Shown piece after piece: positions 2 to 59,642 of a stretch of DNA of 64,000 nucleotides; position 1 is the first letter of the stretch, and each line of letters begins with the position of its first letter. The stretch is taken from contig NZ_MUXE01000001.1 of assembly GCF_003063245.1 (NCBI RefSeq), positions 62,001 through 126,000 of the forward strand, read 5' to 3'. The translations under genes were made by a program, and so were the position numbers. The notes below the pieces were generated by a model, which saw only the letters and a program-made list of their open reading frames with translations, was not told where the DNA came from and did not search any database. Source of the DNA: Arcobacter caeni (GTDB lineage Bacteria; Campylobacterota; Campylobacteria; Campylobacterales; Arcobacteraceae).

Positions 2-619
2 TATAAAGAATCTTTATCTCAATCAAAAATTATAACTGGGACTAAAGATGCTACAAGAATAAAAACAATTGGTGCAAGAATAGCTAAAGTCGCCAATAGA
101 AGTGATTTTCAATGGGAATTTAATCTTGTAGAAGATGAGGCTGTAAATGCATTTTGTTTACCTGGTGGAAAAGTTGTAGTTTATACAGGTATCTTAAAAA
201 TGGCAAAAAATGATGACCAACTAGCAACCGTGATTTCCCATGAAATAGCTCACGCATTAGCTCGTCATGGTGCTGAAAAAATGAGTGCTTCTATGGTTCA
301 ACAAGGTCTTCTAGTTGTAGGCAATATTGCATTAGGTACAACTGCTCCTCAATATCAAGGGCTATTTAATCAGACTTATGGGATTGGAAGTCAAGTAGGA
401 GTAATGCTTCCTTATGGAAGAATGCAAGAAAGTGAAGCTGATGAGATTGGTATTTATCTAATGGCTCAAGCTGGATATAATGTAAATGAAGCTCTGAAAT
501 TTTGGGAAAATATGAGTGAAGGTAAAAAAGATGAAAGTGATTTTTTATCTACGCATCCAAGTTCTGCAAATAGGATAAGTGATATTAAAAAAGTAATTGA
601 GAAATTACCAAAATCTTAA
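2..619 (+). CDS. M48-family zinc metalloprotease (C-terminal part)
   Basis: The gene runs in from the left edge. The frame is open from base 2 with protein-like sequence, so the ATG at 200 is internal. The visible part (about 205 residues) has the zinc motif HEIAHALARH near bases 239-268, the later glutamate ligand in a helix reading ESEADEIG near 430, the upstream stretch NAFCLPGG, and a C-terminal STHPSSANRI. This order is typical of the BepA/LoiP/Oma1 branch of peptidase M48, which acts in the periplasm on misfolded envelope proteins. The N-terminal signal is outside the window, so localisation is inferred from the family. It ends just before a bidirectional hairpin shared with yebC. Confidence 0.9.
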   Translation, partial: YKESLSQSKIITGTKDATRIKTIGARIAKVANRSDFQWEFNLVEDEAVNAFCLPGGKVVVYTGILKMAKNDDQLATVISHEIAHALARHGAEKMSASMVQQGLLVVGNIALGTTAPQYQGLFNQTYGIGSQVGVMLPYGRMQESEADEIGIYLMAQAGYNVNEALKFWENMSEGKKDESDFLSTHPSSANRISDIKKVIEKLPKS

Positions 620-623
620 AAAT

Positions 624-649
624 AAAATATAGGAAAATTCCTATATTTT
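624..649. terminator. Bidirectional hairpin between convergent genes
   Basis: Ten-base inverted repeat (AAAATATAGG / CCTATATTTT) with a 6-nt loop between the convergent M48 and yebC genes. It is followed on the minus strand by ATTTTT, which fits an intrinsic terminator for yebC. The plus-strand tail is poorer in U. Confidence 0.65.
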
Positions 650-660
650 AGAAAAAAGTT

Positions 661-1371
661 TTAAGCTATATTTGTATAAACCGCTTGAACATCATCATCA
701 TCTTCAAGCTTTTCTATTAGTTTACCAATATCTTCTTGTTGAGCTTCACTAAACTCTTGAGGATTATTTGAAATTCTTTTTAATTCTGCTTTTGTAAGTT
801 CAATTCCTAATTCTTCAAATTTTTGATTCATATTTCCAAAATCTGTATAATTAGAATATGCTAAAACTAAACCGTCTTCTTCATCAATCTCTTCAAGACC
901 AGCATCAATAAGTTCTAACTCTAACTCTTCAAGTTCCATATTTGCAGGTTTTGTAAATTCGAAAATTGCTTTTCTATCAAAAAAGAACTCTAAAGAACCC
1001 GTAGGAACTAATTGTCCGTTTGTTTTATTGAAATACATTTTTACATTTGCAACTGTTCTTGTATTATTATCTGTTGCAGTTTCCACAAATATTAAAACTC
1101 CATGAGGACCTTTTCCCTCAAAATTAACTTCAGCAAAATTTGCAGAATCTTTTCCCGATGCTCTTTTTATTGCAGCATCAATATTTGCTTTTGGCATGTT
1201 TTCAGCTTTTGCATTTAAAATAGCTGTTCTAAGTGCTGAATTTATTTCAGGATCAGCAACACCTGCTTTTGCTGCCATTTCAATTGCTTTTGCTAATTTT
1301 GGGAAAATTCTTGACATATTTCCCCATCTTTTCATCTTAGCAGCTTTTCTATATTCAAAGGCTCTACCCAT
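661..1371 (-). CDS. yebC: YebC/PmpR/TACO1-family protein
   Basis: A 236-residue full-length member of the YebC family, starting MGRAFEYRKAAKMKRW. The N-terminal helical domain includes PKANIDAAIKRASGK and a glycine-rich segment FEGKGPHGV near residue 85. An acidic central domain and a C-terminal domain ending DDDDVQAVYTN follow, as usual. Members were first described as DNA-binding regulators; recent work on YebC and TACO1 points to a role in translating proline-rich stretches. The ATG at 1371 has GGAG upstream at good spacing. It is a single gene, convergent with the M48 gene and divergent from mlaA. Confidence 0.93.
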   Translation of the reverse strand: MGRAFEYRKAAKMKRWGNMSRIFPKLAKAIEMAAKAGVADPEINSALRTAILNAKAENMPKANIDAAIKRASGKDSANFAEVNFEGKGPHGVLIFVETATDNNTRTVANVKMYFNKTNGQLVPTGSLEFFFDRKAIFEFTKPANMELEELELELIDAGLEEIDEEDGLVLAYSNYTDFGNMNQKFEELGIELTKAELKRISNNPQEFSEAQQEDIGKLIEKLEDDDDVQAVYTNIA

Positions 1372-38201: not shown

Positions 38202-38301
38202 TGGCGAGAAGGTGTAGGAATCGAACCTACCACGGCGTATTACACATAAACCGTCAATCAGGGTTGAAACCTGTGGTGCCCACCAGGTACACTAACCTCC
38301 C
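38202..38301 (-). tRNA. selC: tRNA-Sec (anticodon UCA)
   Basis: About 100 nt including an encoded CCA (TGG at 38202-38204 on the plus strand). On the minus strand: 8-nt acceptor strand GGGAGGTT against ACCTTCTC, long D stem TGGTG-GG-CACCA, anticodon loop TTTCAAC with UCA, a long variable arm ACGG...CCGT, and T arm GTAGG-TTCGATT-CCTAC. The 8-bp acceptor, long D stem and big variable arm are marks of bacterial tRNA-Sec. There are two G-U pairs and one apparent U-C mismatch (position 7) in the acceptor. It lies 57 bases from selA, in divergent orientation. Confidence 0.93.
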
Positions 38302-51191: not shown

Positions 51192-52214
51192 TTGGCAAAA
51201 ATTTTATTAAATAAAGAAAATTTACTTTACAATTTTGGTGTTATTTCAAAACAAACAGGTTCTGTTGAAAAGGTCGCTGTTGTTCTAAAAGATAACGCTT
51301 ATGGGCATGGACTTTTAGAAATTGCAACAATGGCAAGTGAATTTGGAATCAAAAAAGCAGTAGTGAAATCAATAGAAGAAGCGTTAGTAATTGAGAAATT
51401 ATTTGATGATATTTTAATCCTTGCACAAAAAGATATTCACACTTATTCACATACTTTTCACATAGCTTTAAATAGCCTTGATGCTATAAAAAACTTACCT
51501 GAAAATATAAATGTTCATATCAAGGTAGATACGGGAATGCACCGAAATGGTGTAATGCCAGAAGAGTTAGAAACGGCTATTTTAGGGCTTTTAGAAAAAA
51601 ATATTAAAATCACGGGTGTATTTACACATCATAAAAACTCAGATGAATTAACAACTGACTTTTACTGGCAGAAGTCCGTATTTAAAGGGGTAAAAGAGAA
51701 TGTGAAAACAATATGTGAAAAACTTTCTTTAGCAATCCCCGCATTCCATTCTTGTAACTCAGCAGCACTTTTTAGAACCACTGATTTTGACGAAGATTTT
51801 GCAAGAGTTGGAATTGCAACTTATGGATATTTAGATAATGCAGGAGTTTTTGATTTTCCAGTTTTAAAACCAGTTATGTCACTTTGGGCTTCAAGATTAG
51901 CAACACGAGAGTTAAAAAAAGGACAAAGTGTTGGTTATGGTGGAACATTCACTGCAAGTGAAGATATGACTGTTTCTACTTATGATTTAGGTTATGGAGA
52001 TGGATTTTTAAGATTAAATGAAAGAACAGCTTACACAACACCAAAAGGTTATAAAGTTTTAGGTCGTGTTTCTATGGATAATCTTTCACTAAACACAAAA
52101 GATGAGGATGTTTGTATTTTTGATGATGTTCATGTATTGGCAAAATTACACGATACTATCACATACGAAATCACAACAACACTAAGTCCATTTATAAAAA
52201 AAGAAATAGTGTGA
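51192..52214 (+). CDS. alr: Alanine racemase
   Basis: A 340-residue PLP racemase making D-alanine for peptidoglycan. The PLP lysine is in [14 protein letters not shown] near residue 33, [13 protein letters not shown] near 110-122, [11 protein letters not shown] near 145, and the second catalytic Tyr in SVGYGGTF near 248, with GRVSMDNLS later. It starts with TTG two bases after uvrC and overlaps the Sel1 gene by 4 bases. It is slightly shorter than the usual 360-370. Confidence 0.93.
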
Positions 52215-52879
52215 AAAAAACTCTACTTTTTCTATTTATTCTAGGAAGTTTTTTAAATGCCATGACTTTTGAAGAAGCAAATGCTATTCAAAAAGTTCAA
52301 GGAAGTTTAAAAGCTCTTGGTGCATATAAAGAATTAGTAGAGCAAAATAATCCTCAAGCAATGCATGAATTGGCGCTTATTTATCTAAAAGGTGATGGAA
52401 TTGCAAAAAATATAAATAAAGCTCAAGAACTTCTAAAAAAAGCTTCTGATTTAGGAAATGCTGAATCTACATATATTTTGGCAAAACTTTATCTTTCAAA
52501 TAAAACAATATTTTTCGATGAAAAAAAAGCTTATAACACTTTTGTAGATGCAGCAAATCAAAATCACGCAAAAGCCCAACTGATGATTGGACGATTCTTT
52601 TTATTAGGAGAAATCGTATCAAAAGATTACGAAAAAGCCCTACACTATTTCAAACTAGCTTCAAAACAAAAAGAGTACGAAGCAAACTGTTATATTGCCT
52701 ATATGTACGCAAGTGGAACAGGTGTTTTTCCAAATTTTGGAAGAGCAAATAGTTTCGCAAAAAGTGAATATGAAAAAGGCAATAAATTTTGTATAAAAGT
52801 ATGGAATGATTATAATTTATTTAAATATCCAAAAGATGAGGGGTTTAGGATTGGGGATTATAATGTGCCTGTTGAATAA
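52211..52879 (+). CDS. Sel1-repeat periplasmic protein
   Basis: A 222-residue secreted protein with signal peptide (about 1-17, ending LNA) and about four Sel1 repeats: [76 protein letters not shown]. Two cysteines lie in the last part. GTG start overlapping alr by 4 bases. Such proteins are common in Helicobacter and Arcobacter relatives and mediate protein contacts. Downstream lies a decayed region and then the convergent RADAR operon. Confidence 0.83.
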
Positions 52880-53172
52880 TTTTTAGTTATATTAGTCCAA
52901 GAAAATGGAAGTAGAATAAATGAAATAAAAGAAGAAATTAGTAGCATCTTTGGTATTTCTGTTGATTTAGCTGATAGTTCAGGAATGGGGAAAACTGCTA
53001 AAAAATTTATTCTTGATAGAGCTATTTATTTCTAAAATATATTTGATAAAGATGATTTAAAAAGTATTTATGATATTAGAACTTATCAACCATTGAATGA
53101 ATAATTAAATTTGGTCTTCCAAAGTTTAAAGAGCAGCGTCTTAAAGTTATATCTAACTATAAAGCAAAATGA
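52880..53172 (+). pseudogene. Decayed coding remnant next to RADAR
   Basis: The 351-base gap between the Sel1 gene and rdrB has no intact gene. One frame reads VILVQENGSRINEIKEE, then ISVDLADSSGMGKTAKKF, ends at TAA after RAIYF, then continues IFDKDDLKSIYDIRTYQP to a second stop; a further piece, FGLPKFKEQRLKVISNYKAK, follows in a shifted frame and ends at 53172. Composition and flow are protein-like, with a possible P-loop GMGKT. The family is not recognised. It may be the end of a gene cut when RADAR was inserted or an older defence gene. Confidence 0.5.
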
Positions 53173-53230: not shown

Positions 53231-55957
53231 TTAAACTCTTCTAAACTCACTTTTTTGATGGTCACAATCAAATATTTCAATTCCTAATTTTCTAATATTT
53301 TCACACCAATTTTCTATTTTTTCTTTACTCTTACTATGAATTCCAAAAGCAGTTCTTTCCAATAAATCAAACTCATTTCGAAGTGTCGTTGGCATAATAG
53401 CTGGGTCATCTGTATTTACACAAACTTTCATTCTTGATGTTCTAATCTTATATTTGTTGAATTTTGGATTATCTGCATTTAAATCTAAATCATCACATTC
53501 AATAGGATTCCATCTAAATATTGGATGTTTATCAAAGGCGTGAATATGAGCTATATAAACATTCGAAGATGGATTTGTCTCGATAATGATTCCTTTTTCA
53601 CAAAACTTTTGAATAAGCCTATCTTGTACGGCTTCAATAAGCTCTAAATCTTCATCTGTAATAAAATATTTATATAAATTTCTATTTATATTTTCATATT
53701 CTATTTTTATAACCTCATCACCTTTTTTTCTTACACTTGCACAAGTATGATATTTTTTATAAATATCTATTGCTTTTTTATACTCTTCTTTACATAGTTT
53801 TTCATTATCAAAATCTGCAATTTTTAGATATTCATCTGCTTTATTTAGCATTTCATCTTCTGAGAACATTACAATAGGACAAAATTCTCTTAGTTTCCAA
53901 GCCTTATACATATCTTCTATTTCACAACTTAAATCATCATTTTTTGATAAATAAATATCTTTATAAAGTTCTTTTATAACTCGTGCGTATTTATCTCTTA
54001 ATTTATCAGTATTTTTATAATAAGCTAATACTTCTATACTTTGATGATATAACCAAACAAGATTATCAAGATGTTCTTGTTTAGTGACAAAAATATCTCC
54101 GTTTAGCTCACACCACTCTTTTGGATTTAATCCAATTGCAAGTGCATGACCTAGTCTATCTTTATCACTCATTCCATAAAACTTAACTGTTTCATGTACT
54201 TTTCTCATACCTGTAACAATATGATTAAAATCTTCTCCTGCATGAACTGAAAGTCTTAGTTTATAATTTTCTACAAAGTCGTGTCCATCTTTTTGGTATT
54301 TCAGATAATCAGATTTAAAATCATCAAGCTTTTTTACATCTCTTCTTAAATACTTGATAATAGGAGCAAAAACTTCTGGAGGAGTTCTGTTTTCATCTCC
54401 TGCTACATCTATGGTTGTTATTAGTTTTGTTAGATCTATATAATCATTTTCTAAATCTTTTTTATGTTCTAATACTCTTGTAATATTAGAATAAAACTTA
54501 CTATAAAAATCAAATTTATTTATGATATGTGATTCTTGATATAAAAAATTGTTTATATTCCTAGCTTCTTTTTTAAGGTCAGTTCTTAACTTATTAAATC
54601 TTGCTAAACAATAGTTTGTATCATTTGATTTTTTTGTTTCATCTTTTTTTCTAACAAAATGAACACAAAAATGATAATTTCTTTTTGAATGGTTTGTGTT
54701 TAAAAAATATTTTTCATGGGTTTTATTTATAAAAGTAGATTCTTTTTTTATTATCTCTTTATCAAAAGCTAATTTATATGAGATAAATTCTTTATCATTT
54801 CTCAAAAGTGCATCAGGTGATATTTTTGCTTCAACTTTTGAAGTACCATTTGAGATAATATTTGAAGCGATATTATTGTGTCTATTTTTTTCTTGTTTTC
54901 GCAAACTTGAGCCAAAAAATTCAGAAAAATGACTAAGTCCAATATTTTGAGACATTACCATATAAGAGCGCAAAATATTAATAATATGTAAAAATATTTT
55001 TATCACTTTTCTTATATCTCTATTTCTACAAGTTTCATGGGTTTTAAAAAGCAAGATATTATATAAAAACCACTGTTTTGTAGTATATCCATCTTTTTTA
55101 TAAGTAATTATCTCTTTTAAAAATTCATCTTTTAGATTCATACGATTATCAGATAGTTTTTCAATCATTGTAAATGAAGCAAAATCAATATCTATCATTG
55201 ATAATTTTTCATATTTAAATAAATTATCCAAATCTCTTTTTATATCTGTTCTAACACCTTTTTTTAATACAAAATCATTTATCACACTTACACAATATTT
55301 TGATATATCTATTAGATTTCCAAAAGATAAGTTTCCATTGTTTATATATGAAAATTCATTTATTCGAGGAAGTTCGTTTGTATATTTCATATTATAAAAT
55401 TTATTATTTGTAGGAAGAGAAAGTAATGCCATGAAATTTAGTGCTACATCATTTGCTCCACCAAGATGCAAATGATTTTCTGCATATTCTTTATAGTCTC
55501 TATTTACACTAAGAGCAAGTGGTGTGATGTATTTTGTAAACTCTTTGATATTTGTAAATGAAAAGTGATTTTGATTATATAGTTTGGCTAACTTATGTCC
55601 TATTATATTAAAAGGATGAATTTTACTAATAACTGAACTATATTTATCCAAAAGCTCACTTTTTGCATAGATATGGTTTCCATCAAATTTTAGATAATTA
55701 TCAAATAACTCATCTAAAAAATCAAACTCATAATCAAGTGTAAAAAATTTTGAATCACTATGAGATAAAGTATGATTCATACTATTTTCAATAGCTCCCT
55801 TTCGAAAACTATTTGAATAAAAATCCCTCATACCATGTTCGTAAGATAGATTTTTATCTAGTTTTTCATATGAATCTATATTTAATAAATCATATAGTAT
55901 TTTGTCACTTCTAAGAAGTACGATATTTGAGATGTCTTTTAGGTTATTTTTAAGCAT
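53231..55957 (-). CDS. rdrB: RADAR adenosine-deaminase-like protein RdrB
   Basis: A 908-residue cytosolic protein with the metal site of adenosine deaminases spread along a much longer chain: HLHLGGAND at residues 162-170 (HxH), SVHAGEDF near 570 (His and catalytic Glu), RLGHALAIGL near 600, TNPSSNVYIAH near 800 and NTDDPAIMPTTLRNEF near 847 (Asp pair). Large size and pairing with an ATPase match RdrB of the RADAR phage-defence system, where RdrB forms a shell that deaminates adenosine nucleotides or RNA. Its ATG overlaps rdrA by 8 bases. All expected catalytic residues appear present. Confidence 0.9.
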   Translation of the reverse strand: MLKNNLKDISNIVLLRSDKILYDLLNIDSYEKLDKNLSYEHGMRDFYSNSFRKGAIENSMNHTLSHSDSKFFTLDYEFDFLDELFDNYLKFDGNHIYAKSELLDKYSSVISKIHPFNIIGHKLAKLYNQNHFSFTNIKEFTKYITPLALSVNRDYKEYAENHLHLGGANDVALNFMALLSLPTNNKFYNMKYTNELPRINEFSYINNGNLSFGNLIDISKYCVSVINDFVLKKGVRTDIKRDLDNLFKYEKLSMIDIDFASFTMIEKLSDNRMNLKDEFLKEIITYKKDGYTTKQWFLYNILLFKTHETCRNRDIRKVIKIFLHIINILRSYMVMSQNIGLSHFSEFFGSSLRKQEKNRHNNIASNIISNGTSKVEAKISPDALLRNDKEFISYKLAFDKEIIKKESTFINKTHEKYFLNTNHSKRNYHFCVHFVRKKDETKKSNDTNYCLARFNKLRTDLKKEARNINNFLYQESHIINKFDFYSKFYSNITRVLEHKKDLENDYIDLTKLITTIDVAGDENRTPPEVFAPIIKYLRRDVKKLDDFKSDYLKYQKDGHDFVENYKLRLSVHAGEDFNHIVTGMRKVHETVKFYGMSDKDRLGHALAIGLNPKEWCELNGDIFVTKQEHLDNLVWLYHQSIEVLAYYKNTDKLRDKYARVIKELYKDIYLSKNDDLSCEIEDMYKAWKLREFCPIVMFSEDEMLNKADEYLKIADFDNEKLCKEEYKKAIDIYKKYHTCASVRKKGDEVIKIEYENINRNLYKYFITDEDLELIEAVQDRLIQKFCEKGIIIETNPSSNVYIAHIHAFDKHPIFRWNPIECDDLDLNADNPKFNKYKIRTSRMKVCVNTDDPAIMPTTLRNEFDLLERTAFGIHSKSKEKIENWCENIRKLGIEIFDCDHQKSEFRRV

Positions 55958-58544
55958 TAAAAATTAAGTTCTGATAATTTTTTACTAATTCATCATCACT
56001 AAACCTAAGATTAATTTCGTTCATATCTTCTAAAATTAAACTAAACACTTTATGATATTTTCTATTTTCATCTGAAAGTAATTCTTGAGATATTTTTTTA
56101 TTTTCTAAATTTTGTTGATTAAATATATCCATAATTTTTTGTAAATAATCTTTATAGCAATTTTCTGCTTTAATACCCTCTTGATATGAATCATTTTTGA
56201 AATATTTACTATAAGGAGTATTATAAAGATTATTTAATTTTTTAATACTTGACTTATATTTATTTTCTTTTTCTTTCTTTATAGTAGTTTTTGGTGTATT
56301 ATCACTTATTATTTTCTTCAATATTTCATCTAATTTTTCTTTAAAAACTATTTCATTTAATTTCTGATAAATAAAATTAGTTAGTGTGCCTTCTTTTAAT
56401 TTTTGAATATTATTTATAAAGACTTTTGAATGAGTTTTTATATTTTCTATTCTTCCATCCACGGCAATATTTTCTGTTGAAATATTTTCTCTTGATTCAA
56501 AACTTGCTATTGAATTTAAAAATATATAACTCACTCTTTGCACATAATCATATAATGGAGAAAGCATTATAATTGGATTAGGTTGAGCCTCTATTGATTC
56601 ATAGCTTTTTGAATAATTTGCGACTTTAAATATATTAAGATTGTTAATATATTTTTTCAACATCTCATACAAGAAAACAGATGTAAATTTTAAATCCATA
56701 ATTTCATTAAAAGAATTTATAAAATTTGAATAATCATTATTAGAAAGAGTACTATTCTTGTCTTTTTCTTCTTCATATTCATCTTTACTCACTCCATCAA
56801 GATATTTATTTTTATTAATTCCAGCTAAAAATGGTATTCCATAATTTAGTACGTTAATTTTTTCTTTTCTATCTTCTACGGTTATAGTTTTGTCAATTAT
56901 ACAAATCATTGCTTCCACAAACTTTCCAGTTATCATTAAAATTTTATTCGTTGTGTTTGAATAATAATTATCGTGAAGCATTAAATATAAAGCTAAATAT
57001 TCATTACTAGTTTTATCTTCAAGCTCCTTCAAAAATTCTTTTTTAGGTAAATATAATTTATCTCTCACAATTTCTTTATCTATCTTATTATATGGATATT
57101 TCTCATTCAAAAAGAAATTTCCCTTTAATGCTTTATGTATTGAATAACCAAGATTATTGTCTTTGCTAAATATAAATGCTTCAACATCATTATCTAAAAG
57201 CAAAGATAGTCTTTTTTTATCTGTATCATTTGCATATCTATAAAAATCTGCAGTTAGTTTTAAAGTTTTTTGATGTTCAGCAGGATTGTCAATAATCTTT
57301 TTTTTAATCAAGTCATCAAATCTATTAGTAATTATTGTATAAGATTTTTTTTCATTCTTTTCTTCGTAAGAGTTTTTATTATAGTCTTTATCAAATATCT
57401 TCTCAAATATTACTTTTTTATGATACAGATATTGCACAAAATCTCTAGTATTATTTGTAAATACTTGGTGAGTAAACTCTTTTTGATTTATACCCCAATT
57501 TATAACTCTAATCTCAAAATCTTTTAAATCTTCATAAGGTATCTGATTACCTTTAATTTCTATTTTTACTGTATTTAATTTTAAAATTGCAAAAATATCC
57601 TTTAATTTGATGTGATATTCACTTGGAAAAACTTTATGTAAATACTGTTCGACAAGATTATCAACAAGTTTTATTTTTTCTTTATATTCATCACTATTTT
57701 TTAAATCACTGTTTAAATCTTTTAGATATTTTACATCTTTAAAAAATTGTATTTTTTCTTTAAATCTTGTTTCAACTATTTCTCTATAAAGTTTCATATC
57801 TCCAGCAACAATAGGAATAAGAAAAGGTGAAGCTAGATACTTTCTCACAACTTCAAGAACATCAAAACCTTTATCAAATGCCATATCAACATCATCTATA
57901 AGCATTACAATTGCATTTACTCCAAACATTGTACTTACTATTTGAAAAAACTCATGTGCATATTGTTCAAGTTTTTGACTTGATTTATATGAAGCAATCT
58001 CTTCAATACCAACATCTTGTTTATTTTCAAGAGAAGATACAGAACTAAGTGATTTAGATAAATTTTCTAGTGCTTTATAATATTCATCTATACAATTTTT
58101 TGCAGGTTTCTCATTTTTATATTTTCTATCACAATTACTATCTAAATAATAATCATCTTCATCTAGACAATTATTTTTTAGTCGTTTAGATACCATCTCT
58201 ACAATTTTCCCAAAAATAACACCCAAAAACTTTTCTGTATGTTCCAAAAGTGTCGGGTCAACAGGTTTTAAAAAAATATAATTAGGTTTTTCAATCTTTG
58301 CAATATTTTTATAATAATTTTCAATATTTACCATAAAAGCAGTTTTTCCAACACCTCTATCACCATCAATAAAAATAGTATCATGGAATCTACAATCAGT
58401 TATATCATTCGTATCTCTGCCAACTTTATGCTCTTTTAATATTTCAGATACTCTTTTAAAAGCATCAATTTGAAAAAGTTCATTTTCATTTTGATATTTT
58501 TGTGCCTTATTTGCTTCATTGATATTTATAATAATTTCATTCAT
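55950..58544 (-). CDS. rdrA: RADAR AAA+ ATPase RdrA
   Basis: An 864-residue ATPase. Walker A is GDRGVGKT at residues 61-68 and Walker B IVMLIDDVD at 212-220, an AAA/STAND-like core in the first 350 residues. The last 500 residues are helical and highly charged, with no other known domain. Size, order and neighbour fit RdrA, the ring-forming ATPase that senses phage infection and works with RdrB. AAGGAAGAAG precedes the ATG, which lies inside the small membrane-protein gene. Lysine and asparagine content is high, as in the neighbours, so base composition does not mark it as foreign. Confidence 0.88.
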   Translation of the reverse strand: MNEIIININEANKAQKYQNENELFQIDAFKRVSEILKEHKVGRDTNDITDCRFHDTIFIDGDRGVGKTAFMVNIENYYKNIAKIEKPNYIFLKPVDPTLLEHTEKFLGVIFGKIVEMVSKRLKNNCLDEDDYYLDSNCDRKYKNEKPAKNCIDEYYKALENLSKSLSSVSSLENKQDVGIEEIASYKSSQKLEQYAHEFFQIVSTMFGVNAIVMLIDDVDMAFDKGFDVLEVVRKYLASPFLIPIVAGDMKLYREIVETRFKEKIQFFKDVKYLKDLNSDLKNSDEYKEKIKLVDNLVEQYLHKVFPSEYHIKLKDIFAILKLNTVKIEIKGNQIPYEDLKDFEIRVINWGINQKEFTHQVFTNNTRDFVQYLYHKKVIFEKIFDKDYNKNSYEEKNEKKSYTIITNRFDDLIKKKIIDNPAEHQKTLKLTADFYRYANDTDKKRLSLLLDNDVEAFIFSKDNNLGYSIHKALKGNFFLNEKYPYNKIDKEIVRDKLYLPKKEFLKELEDKTSNEYLALYLMLHDNYYSNTTNKILMITGKFVEAMICIIDKTITVEDRKEKINVLNYGIPFLAGINKNKYLDGVSKDEYEEEKDKNSTLSNNDYSNFINSFNEIMDLKFTSVFLYEMLKKYINNLNIFKVANYSKSYESIEAQPNPIIMLSPLYDYVQRVSYIFLNSIASFESRENISTENIAVDGRIENIKTHSKVFINNIQKLKEGTLTNFIYQKLNEIVFKEKLDEILKKIISDNTPKTTIKKEKENKYKSSIKKLNNLYNTPYSKYFKNDSYQEGIKAENCYKDYLQKIMDIFNQQNLENKKISQELLSDENRKYHKVFSLILEDMNEINLRFSDDELVKNYQNLIFNA

Positions 58545-58789
58545 CTACTTCTTCCTTTATTGATTTTATTTTTATTTGTTGTTTATTTGGTTTATTTTCT
58601 TTGAGTAAATAATTTATATACAATTTTTTATTTCGTGCTTTGTATCTTGATTTTACTAAATAATGAAAAATTACAATTAAAAAGTTTATCGTTAAAAAAA
58701 AGTAATACAAAAAAGATTGAAGAAGGAGCGACAGAACGAGTAAAAAATCCAATAAATCTATCAGCAAATTTTTCTAAAAATTTATCCAA
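58537..58789 (-). CDS. Small membrane protein of the RADAR operon, apparently frameshifted
   Basis: The intact frame is 58537-58767 (76 residues, TTG start, one to two hydrophobic segments, charged tail ending KSIKEEVDE). However, another frame from TTG 58789, with AGGA upstream, reads MDKFLEKFADRFIGFFTRSV and APSSIFFVLLFF, which looks more like a real N-terminus. The two frames would join if the A8 tract (plus strand 58694-58701; T8 in the gene) were one base shorter, giving a protein of about 83 residues. Small membrane proteins accompany many RADAR loci (SLATT or Csx27 types); this one matches neither clearly. It overlaps rdrA by 8 bases. Confidence 0.6.
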
Positions 58790-58874: not shown

Positions 58875-59642
58875 TTATAAATTTATACTCACATCCTCAA
58901 AAACAAACTCTTTCCCAAACTCCACACAATAATCAACAAACATCTCAAAATATTTATTTACCTCATCCTTATCGTATCCAGCCAAAGAAATTACTACTTT
59001 TCTTTTATCTCCTAAAATCTTTGGCAATGATGAAAAGTCTAAATGCTCAGGGATTTTTTTCATGGTATCTATCAAGTCATTTTCACTTGCATTTATTGTC
59101 ATTACTTTTCGATATTTTTCTATATTTGATTTTGGATATAACTTATCCAAAGCCTCGACAACCATAGCTTGGCTCATTGATGGAAAACCTGGGGTGAAGA
59201 AAAATCTATCTTCTAGGTAAAATCCTGCTACATTATTTACTACATTTGTGAGAAGTTTTGCATTTATTGGCAAATATGCCATATTTATTCTATGCGGGTA
59301 AGCTTCCTGCGCAAACTGATTTATGATTTTATTTTTTGCCTCTTTGTGAAACTCCATTTTTCCATCACGAAAAACTTTTCCTGCTACCTCTCTTGTATAA
59401 TCATCAGGAGTTGCACCGATTCCGCCAAAACAGAACATTACTGAATTTGGGTCGCCTTTAATTAGATTAAAAATATTTTCCATAAGATTTGTATCATCAG
59501 CTATTACAAAAGAGGCTTTGTGTTCCCAACCACGACTTAAAAGTTGTTGGTTTAAAAATGTAAAATGGGCATCTTTACGACGCCCATTTAAAAGTTCTGT
59601 TCCTATAATTACACTATAAAAATTTGGTTTTTTTTCTAACAT
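58875..59642 (-). CDS. CinA N-terminal / molybdopterin-binding-like protein
   Basis: A 255-residue protein with the MoaB/Mog-like fold of the CinA N-terminal domain: YSVIIGTELLNGRRKDAHFTFLNQQLLSRGWE (about 9-40) and FCFGGIGATPDDYTREVAGKVF (about 70-91). It lacks the C-terminal deamidase domain (PncC). In CinA this domain has ADP-ribose or NMN-related pyrophosphatase activity. It follows the short adenylate kinase gene by 3 bases on the minus strand, and RADAR begins about 85 bases after its stop. Confidence 0.85.
   Translation of the reverse strand: MLEKKPNFYSVIIGTELLNGRRKDAHFTFLNQQLLSRGWEHKASFVIADDTNLMENIFNLIKGDPNSVMFCFGGIGATPDDYTREVAGKVFRDGKMEFHKEAKNKIINQFAQEAYPHRINMAYLPINAKLLTNVVNNVAGFYLEDRFFFTPGFPSMSQAMVVEALDKLYPKSNIEKYRKVMTINASENDLIDTMKKIPEHLDFSSLPKILGDKRKVVISLAGYDKDEVNKYFEMFVDYCVEFGKEFVFEDVSINL

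What the first reader, a model, noticed from the sequence alone, without database searches (positions are those of the whole stretch)
53231..58544. RADAR anti-phage system in an Arcobacter-like genome
Two overlapping minus-strand genes encode an 864-residue P-loop ATPase (GDRGVGKT, LIDDVD) and a 908-residue protein with every adenosine deaminase signature (HLHLGG, SVHAGED, RLGHALAIGL, NTDDP). Size, order and pairing match RdrA and RdrB of RADAR. They sit at the end of a housekeeping operon, beside decayed DNA, as expected for a defence gene insertion site.
Basis: partly seen in the sequence, partly recalled or inferred. Interest (0 to 1): 0.85.

Follow-up and report, generated by a model that had tools for sequence, protein, structure and literature searches.

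The report
RADAR defence operon with exchanged module
This is a genuine copy of RADAR, a known bacterial anti-phage system that is thought to poison the cell's ATP pool; the unusual part is that the suspected phage-sensing half of one protein has been exchanged between relatives while the rest stayed in place.

Summary
Both match NCBIfam and PADLOC models and PDB RADAR chains; the RdrA model matches solved RdrA rings (Z 26, 602 residues) far above the next fold (Z 11); the mapped catalytic residues are present. Both score below NCBI's curated cut-offs, so they are divergent members.
Three things go beyond the finding. (1) The interval is a defence hotspot: of 12 informative genomes of the genus, 2 carry RADAR, 2 McrBC-type genes, 1 a MNT-HepT pair, 2 other genes, 5 nothing. 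The 'decayed DNA' beside rdrB is a broken MNT-HepT pair. (2) A third, membrane-type gene stands upstream of rdrA in relatives; here only its ends remain. (3) RdrA is mosaic. Its C-terminal lobe, which the structure paper suggests is the phage sensor, is 68% identical to one from another family but 26% to the congener at the same site, whose ATPase part and RdrB are 73-75% identical; trees conflict (AU p 6e-63 one way, 3e-5 the other). A Bacteroidales pair shows the same discontinuity. RADAR is known; the exchangeable lobe is the lead worth testing.

The parts
53231..55957 (-). rdrB, 908 aa, RADAR adenosine deaminase
   Evidence: NCBIfam NF041744 E 2.5e-169, 565.5 bits against a curated cut-off of 800; PADLOC RdrB 1.3e-103; PDB 8fnv/8fnw 2.4e-19; H162, H164, H572, E575, H604, D850, D851 invariant in the five RdrB of alignment A1
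55950..58544 (-). rdrA, 864 aa, RADAR AAA+ ATPase; overlaps rdrB by 8 bases
   Evidence: NCBIfam NF041743 E 1.7e-80, 271.5 bits against a curated cut-off of 600; PADLOC RdrA 3e-41; PDB 8hr7/8fnt about 7e-20; AF2 pLDDT 82; VIA-align Z 26.1 to 8hr8
57525..58544 (-). RdrA N-terminal ATPase part (residues about 1-340): Walker A G66 K67 T68, Walker B D217 D218, D249
   Evidence: residue correspondence to E. coli RdrA; 73% identical to the congener L050/G020 over residues 1-366
56340..57512 (-). RdrA C-terminal lobe, exchanged segment (residues about 345-735, the limits used for the trees)
   Evidence: After residue 366, 68% identical to L051 but 25-29% to L050, L052, L053, L054; sliding profile; tree conflict and AU tests; dS
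55953..56339 (-). RdrA C-terminal tail (residues about 736-864), divergent from all five relatives
   Evidence: 13-16 of about 40 identical even to L051; residues after 746-747 are outside the aligned range with solved RdrA
58540..58789 (-). remnant of a third operon gene (membrane-type protein of 220-234 aa in relatives); only about the first 40 and last 53 codons remain, in different frames
   Evidence: blastn 81% and 83% to the intact gene in G020; tblastn 70% and 57% to the L050 protein; a profile search of the genome finds only these two pieces
52910..53163 (+). remnant of a nucleotidyltransferase (MNT)-HepT pair, interrupted by stops
   Evidence: DNA matches of 88-92% over its first part to uninterrupted copies in G020 and G001 (ORFs); the ORFs of the G001 copy hit NTP_transf_2 and HepT-like in Pfam
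52211..52879 (+). left border of the hotspot: Sel1-repeat gene (after alr and uvrC)
   Evidence: Pfam Sel1; matches of 70% identity or more in 11 of 31 genomes of the genus, own included
58875..59642 (-). right border of the hotspot: MoCF-domain gene
   Evidence: Pfam MoCF_biosynth; found in 29 of 31 genomes of the genus, own included

Best explanation
The locus is a divergent RADAR anti-phage operon inserted between housekeeping genes of an Aliarcobacter-like chromosome. Mechanism, largely taken over from the characterised family: RdrA, an AAA+ ATPase ring, responds to an unknown sign of phage infection through its helical C-terminal lobe and docks on the RdrB deaminase shell. RdrB then converts ATP/dATP to ITP/dITP, which stops phage replication at the cost of the cell. 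Shown here: family membership, active-site residues, RdrA fold within residues 3-746, hotspot setting, loss of a third gene, purifying selection on the RdrA N-terminal part and RdrB. Inferred: ring assembly, deamination, phage protection. My specific addition, at about 0.55: the C-terminal lobe is an exchangeable recognition module, replaced as a unit by recombination, which would change what triggers the system without touching the ATPase-deaminase engine.
For: Family models and PDB chains; fold: the 20 Foldseek matches at E <= 0.001 are RdrA chains, and VIA Z is 26.1 over 602 residues against 11.1 for the next unrelated chain. Active sites: H572/E575/H604 align to E. coli H498/E501/H530 and G66-K67-T68, D217-D218, D249 to G81-K82-T83, D221-D222, D253. 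The two genes stay together: of 101 sequences scanned (the window and 100 loci, some cut short or from the same genome) 73 gave an RdrA-RdrB pair long enough to use. Variable presence at one site. Exchange: pairwise identities, sliding profile, conflicting trees with AU rejection both ways, dS of the lobe between window and L051 0.61 against 1.07 for RdrB, and an independent Bacteroidales pair L074/L076 with RdrB 94% (dS 0.27) but lobe 39% (dS 2.09).
Against: Both proteins fall below NCBI's curated cut-offs (565/800 and 271/600 bits). Sequence similarity to the solved RdrA ends near residue 345; about the last 118 residues are outside the structural alignments, and against S. suis RdrA only 300 residues within 21-435 align, so the lobe match rests on the E. 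coli-type chains. The third gene is broken, so the system may be crippled in this strain. The RdrA C-terminal part also evolves fast where no exchange is evident (median 41% at ATPase-part identity 60-70%, 57 pairs), and identity to L050 declines over residues 260-385 rather than at a sharp point. Clades and segment limits for the AU tests were chosen after seeing the identities. In the N-terminal tree L051+L053 has weak support (64/83). All five comparison genomes are MAGs by their titles, and L053's rdrB is split into two ORFs. Nothing here shows phage sensing or deaminase activity.
Confidence: 0.88

Rival explanations
1. A RADAR operon that is no longer functional in this strain, because the third gene has been deleted and the operon is on its way out like the neighbouring MNT-HepT pair.
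For: The third gene survives only as two fragments in different frames; a neighbouring toxin-antitoxin-type pair has decayed; a crude scan finds no promoter-like site on the minus strand upstream of rdrA.
Against: rdrA and rdrB are intact long ORFs; dN/dS between window and G020/L050 is 0.19 for RdrA residues 1-290 and 0.26 for RdrB, near the neighbouring housekeeping genes at 0.14-0.18, though a pairwise value does not show that the constraint outlived the deletion. PMC9994260 describes RADAR as a two-protein system and reports defence by three systems. L054 keeps only the 3' end of the third gene and also has intact rdrAB; L052 has intact rdrAB and no recognisable trace of it.
Confidence: 0.12
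2. The RdrA lobe differs between congeners because it evolves very fast in an arms race, not because it was exchanged.
For: The lobe is less conserved than the ATPase part and RdrB across the 2628 pairs as binned; PMC9994260 reports conservation limited to the ATPase domain.
Against: Fast evolution alone does not make the window's lobe 68% identical, with lower synonymous divergence than RdrB, to that of a genome in another family (G428 = L051), nor give a 100/100-supported tree that conflicts with the rdrB tree. L086-L104 and L078-L119 show that lobes can stay 81% and 70% identical at comparable divergence of the other parts.
Confidence: 0.1
3. A metabolic ATPase-deaminase pair unrelated to defence.
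For: RdrB belongs to the adenosine deaminase superfamily (Pfam A_deaminase 2.5e-07).
Against: The RdrB model beats general deaminase models by more than 150 orders of magnitude in E-value; RdrA matches RdrA rings specifically; presence is sporadic (5 of 104 in the family) and the site holds other defence-type genes in congeners.
Confidence: 0.02

Closest known systems
RADAR of Escherichia coli (RdrA/RdrB; PDB 8fnt, 8fnv, 8fnw, and chains of the same length in 8hr7-8hrc; PMC9994260)
   Same: Two adjacent genes, AAA+ motifs, zinc-site histidines and catalytic glutamate, RdrA fold including much of the helical C-terminal lobe.
   Different: Sequence similarity limited to RdrA residues 53-345 and RdrB 569-864 with phmmer; RdrB is about 110 residues longer; 17% identity in the RdrA structural alignment; the operon appears to descend from a three-gene form.
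Campylobacterota RADAR clade: L050 Aliarcobacter sp. STC_124, L051, L052, L053, L054
   Same: RdrB 61-75% identical to the window's and RdrA ATPase part 64-79%; L050 sits at the same chromosomal site.
   Different: L050, L051 and L053 keep an intact third gene; C-terminal lobes fall into two classes, window + L051 against the other four.
Csx27- and SLATT-associated RADAR subtypes (described in PMC7699616, passages read)
   Same: RADAR with an added gene; PMC11676413 speaks of a small membrane protein (passage read).
   Different: The Campylobacterota third gene (intact in relatives only) hits no Csx27 model in PADLOC and no SLATT model in Pfam or NCBIfam at the thresholds used, whereas L082's upstream gene does hit Csx27.
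Cad1 / CARF-fused adenosine deaminase (PMC11645235, title and start of abstract seen in a search listing)
   Same: Adenosine deaminase superfamily; ATP-to-ITP conversion as immunity, according to its title.
   Different: No CARF match stands out here: PADLOC CARF_ADA only 4.4e-05, over the deaminase part, against RdrB 1.3e-103.

Membership tests
RADAR | RdrB-type adenosine deaminase sequence over its full length | tested here: met
   NF041744 residues 40-900 to model 34-850, E 2.5e-169; the score (565.5) is under NCBI's annotation cut-off (800); PADLOC 1.3e-103. No genome of the 104 or 397 searched passes that cut-off.
RADAR | RdrA-type AAA+ ATPase sequence | tested here: met
   NF041743 residues 10-725 to model 3-717, E 1.7e-80; the score (271.5) is under the annotation cut-off (600); PADLOC 3e-41 over residues 15-329.
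RADAR | RdrA Walker A, Walker B and sensor 1 residues | tested here: met
   G66 K67 T68, D217 D218 and D249 align with E. coli G81 K82 T83, D221 D222 and D253. The sensor 2 partner is probably R367, nearly invariant in 44 RdrA, but it was not aligned directly to R377.
RADAR | RdrB zinc-site histidine tetrad and catalytic glutamate | tested here: met
   H572, E575, H604 align with E. coli H498, E501, H530; H162 and H164 are invariant in five RdrB and fall in the full-length model match, but were not aligned residue by residue to H152/H154.
RADAR | RdrA two-layer fold with helical C-terminal lobe | tested here: met
   AF2 model of one chain, pLDDT 82; VIA-align Z 26.1, rmsd 4.8, 602 residues to 8hr8 within model 3-746, so about 230 or more of them in the lobe. 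Residues 747-864 are outside the aligned range; to S. suis RdrA only 21-435 align.
RADAR | rdrA and rdrB adjacent in one operon | tested here: met
   8-base overlap on one strand; same order in the five closest relatives. Co-transcription not tested.
RADAR | RdrA heptamer docking on an RdrB dodecamer | not testable with these tools
   Needs biochemistry or cryo-EM.
RADAR | ATP/dATP to ITP/dITP conversion on phage infection, and protection | not testable with these tools
   Needs expression, mass spectrometry and plaque assays.
Csx27-associated RADAR | A csx27 gene in the operon | tested here: not met
   The window has only a gene remnant; the intact homologue in L037/L050 has no Csx27 hit in PADLOC at E <= 1, while L082's gene hits at 6.6e-09 with the same models.
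SLATT-associated RADAR | A SLATT-domain gene in the operon | tested here: inconclusive
   No SLATT hit for the intact homologue in Pfam at E <= 0.5; whether the family is diverse enough to be missed was not tested, and the AF2 model is poor (pLDDT 61).

The most novel reading that the evidence does not exclude
The RdrA C-terminal lobe is RADAR's interchangeable recognition cassette: natural recombination near the ATPase/lobe junction swaps it between RADAR loci, even across bacterial families, so that one ATPase-deaminase engine can be re-aimed at new phage triggers, as happens with specificity subunits of type I restriction systems. The Campylobacterota operon also carries a dispensable membrane-type protein that matched no family searched.
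Probability: 0.5. Interest if true: 0.75.

Novelty: new member of a known kind. Interest (0 to 1): 0.5.

Why it matters
What triggers RADAR is stated as unknown by its structural authors, who only hypothesise that the C-terminal domain of RdrA is the sensor (PMC9994260, Limitations). Natural pairs whose RdrB and ATPase part are alike but whose lobes differ (window/L050, L051/L053, L074/L076), and the converse pair (window/L051), turn that hypothesis into a direct test: if the lobe senses, lobe partners should share triggers and site neighbours should not. The locus also shows a defined intergenic defence hotspot in this genus.

Tried and rejected
RADAR on viruses: scans of viral contigs for RdrB and for the third gene, each by two short peptide patterns, gave 67 and 75 candidate stretches but no relative by tblastn; distant ones could be missed. 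Plasmids: 7 records with a distant RdrB, the best 27.7% identical; no third-gene match. The lobe alone: in 397 phylum genomes only G000 and G428 (= L051) match strongly; three others match weakly (7e-5 to 8e-4) over 67-109 residues, not followed up.

Identity of the third gene: PADLOC, Pfam, NCBIfam and PDB sequence searches gave no credible match. Its AF2 model from five sequences has pLDDT 61, too low for a fold search, so none was run. A profile search of my own loci found more distant homologues in RADAR loci L056/L140, L058 and L139.

The first automatic split of RdrA, at the envelope end of an iterated profile, gave meaningless C-terminal values because the envelope ran into the lobe; it was redone with a fixed alignment column, and only the latter is used. 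In one search rows were dropped where RdrA was under 600 aa or RdrB under 700 aa; L053 was kept with the longer of its two RdrB pieces.

Promoter and terminator scans of the two borders found fewer sites than shuffles. Rfam at gathering thresholds found no RNA family in the window. The only tRNA found in the window, tRNA-Sec at 38206-38301, is far away, so there is no tRNA insertion site. No flanking repeat was searched for by program at the insertion; I only looked at the printed junctions.

Literature: seven searches. The one naming Arcobacter with RADAR returned 0 papers; the one on swapping of sensor domains with all five terms returned 0; in the other listings I saw no title about exchange of the RdrA lobe, but most listed papers were not opened. 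Of PMC9994260 I read the abstract, sections 8 and 14 in full and passages elsewhere; of PMC7699616, PMC11676413, PMC10952713 and PMC12948488 passages only; the others in the listings only as titles or abstract starts. The second RADAR structure paper (behind PDB 8hr7-8hrc) is recalled, not read. The comparison to type I restriction specificity subunits is recalled.

Full report
What is there. The two minus-strand ORFs are exactly as described. RdrB (908 aa) matches the NCBIfam RdrB model over its full length (E 2.5e-169) and RdrA (864 aa) the RdrA model over residues 10-725 (E 1.7e-80); PADLOC agrees. By sequence the significant PDB matches of single-sequence searches are RADAR chains: 8fnv/8fnw for RdrB, 8hr7/8fnt for RdrA. 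With profiles RdrA again finds only these, while adenosine deaminases follow RdrB at about 1e-5. Both scores lie under NCBI's curated annotation cut-offs (565 of 800; 271 of 600 bits), and no genome among the 104 of the family and 397 of the phylum searched has an RdrB above it, so these are divergent members.

Active sites. PMC9994260 names E. coli RdrA G81/K82/T83, D221/D222, D253, R377 and RdrB H152, H154, H498, H530, E501. The alignments place G66/K67/T68, D217/D218, D249 and H572, H604, E575 at those positions. H162 and H164 are invariant in five RdrB, and R367 is nearly invariant in 44 RdrA; these three were not aligned residue by residue to the E. coli chains.

Fold. AlphaFold2 with 44 RdrA rows gave pLDDT 82. 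The 20 Foldseek PDB matches with E <= 0.001 are RdrA chains (whole-chain TM-scores 0.31-0.50). VIA-align gives Z 26.1, rmsd 4.8 over 602 residues (within model 3-746) to 8hr8, and 11.1 for the best unrelated chain, BrxC. With an ATPase part of about 372 residues, some 230 or more aligned residues must lie in the C-terminal lobe, at 17% identity overall. Residues 747-864 are outside the aligned range, and against S. suis RdrA only residues 21-435 align (Z 19.5, 300 residues).

The site. The window's genome G000 shares its genus code with G020, whose contig is that of L050, titled Aliarcobacter sp. STC_124. The interval between alr/sel1 and the MoCF gene was examined in 14 of the 31 genomes of the genus, own included; in 2 of these (G005, G016) the borders lie apart or on different contigs, leaving 12. 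RADAR: G000 and G020. McrBC-type genes: G022 (a 611-aa AAA protein plus a 405-aa McrBC-domain protein) and G023 (a 409-aa McrBC-domain protein plus a 387-aa protein with DUF4357 and a partial AAA match). MNT-HepT pair plus a 266-aa ORF: G018. An EAL/GGDEF gene: G002. DUF817 and VanZ genes: G025. Nothing: G021, G029, G010, G009 (4-6 bases between the borders as printed) and G001 (133 bases). The remaining 17 genomes were not inspected. The 'decayed DNA' at 52910-53163 matches uninterrupted MNT-HepT pairs in G020 and G001 at 88-92% over its first part; Pfam was run on the G001 pair. RADAR is rare: an RdrB match in 3 of 31 in the genus, 5 of 104 in the family, 7 of 397 in an even sample of the phylum; with the window's RdrB as query, 15 of 228 in L051's family, several of them weak.

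A lost third gene. In G020/L050, L051 and L053 a gene of 220-234 codons precedes rdrA, with two to three hydrophobic segments by a hydropathy count and an all-helical but low-confidence model. In the window about its first 40 and last 53 codons survive in different frames around a net deletion of roughly 450 bases (blastn 81% and 83%; tblastn), and a profile search finds no other copy in the genome. L054 keeps only about the last 30 residues (84% to L051, E 2e-13), apparently an independent loss; L052 shows none. The RdrA N-terminal part and RdrB are under purifying selection between window and L050 (dN/dS 0.19 and 0.26, housekeeping neighbours 0.14-0.18), but a pairwise value cannot date that constraint relative to the deletion.

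A mosaic RdrA. Window against L050: ATPase part (residues 1-366) 73%, RdrB 75%, C-terminal part 26%. Window against L051: 79%, 67%, 68%. L051 against L053: 82%, 82%, 28% (for L053 the first RdrB piece only). In the sliding profile identity to L050 declines from about residue 260 and collapses after 380, while window 341-740 stays at about 80% to L051; RdrB 460-780 is about 90% to L050. Trees of six rows: RdrA 1-290 and RdrB 430-908 join window with L050 (95/92 and 96/97) and reject window+L051 (AU p 0.0045 and 3.5e-5); RdrA 345-735 joins window with L051 (100/100) and rejects window+L050 (6e-63) and L051+L053 (8e-78) (L053's second RdrB piece). L051+L053 is well supported by RdrB (100/99) but not by RdrA 1-290 (64/83). 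These limits and clades were chosen after seeing the identities. Synonymous divergence agrees: window-L051 lobe 0.61, RdrB 1.07.

Is it general? Of 101 sequences scanned, 73 gave usable RdrA-RdrB pairs (2628 comparisons). At ATPase-part identity of 70% or more (18 pairs) the C-terminal part ranges from 29 to 81%. Low outliers include window-L050, L051-L053, window-L053, and Bacteroidales L074-L076 with RdrB 94% (dS 0.27) but lobe 39% (dS 2.09). Conserved cases exist (ATPase part/lobe/RdrB): L086-L104 (86/81/88), L078-L119 (78/70/63). The C-terminal part is in general less conserved than the rest (median 41% at ATPase-part identity 60-70%), so I claim exchange only where trees or synonymous rates point to it. 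L101-L102 (92/66/90) is intermediate and I do not count it.

Reading. The system is RADAR. By the established mechanism (PMC9994260) it should convert ATP/dATP to ITP/dITP on infection; that was not tested here. The paper hypothesises that the RdrA C-terminal domain is the sensor. The exchange found here is what such a sensor module would show, but it does not prove sensing. PDB titles of 8hra and 8hrb speak of an 'RNA-loading state' of RdrA rings, so RNA handling by RdrA remains possible.

Noticed in passing
L038 2631-4103, L039 10343-11821, L128 2617-4125: In three other Campylobacterota RADAR loci (a different RdrB type of 751-756 aa) a DndC-like gene (PADLOC DndC 5e-77, 9e-74, 2e-82) lies next to rdrA or rdrB, which suggests a RADAR-DndC association in this phylum.
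   Followed up: partly
L074 and L076, RdrA: Two Bacteroidales genomes have RdrB 94% identical but RdrA lobes only 39% identical, a case of lobe replacement outside Campylobacterota.
   Followed up: partly
L071 and L073, RdrA from about residue 283: Two Kordia RdrA align at about 95% over the first five blocks of 50, then show no identity for three blocks of 50 residues before recovering; frame change or replacement, not resolved.
   Followed up: no
L061, L062, L063, L066, L067, upstream of rdrA: Pseudoalteromonas and Shewanella RADAR loci carry membrane-type genes of 196-288 aa directly upstream of rdrA, without PADLOC hits and without clear similarity to the Campylobacterota third gene.
   Followed up: partly
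L045 5156-5956: A 266-aa ORF beside a MNT-HepT pair in the same hotspot in G018 has no Pfam or PADLOC match at the thresholds used; candidate uncharacterised defence gene.
   Followed up: no
L121 (Oceanirhabdus sp. W0125-5): Two complete RdrA-RdrB pairs lie in tandem within about 13 kb; the same chromosome has a further RdrB locus, L117, whose rdrA appears in pieces.
   Followed up: no
L053 8001-10703: rdrB is split into two ORFs of 416 and 467 aa in a MAG labelled Helicobacter cetorum (isolate SulCav_PC08); broken gene or assembly error, and the species label looks doubtful.
   Followed up: no
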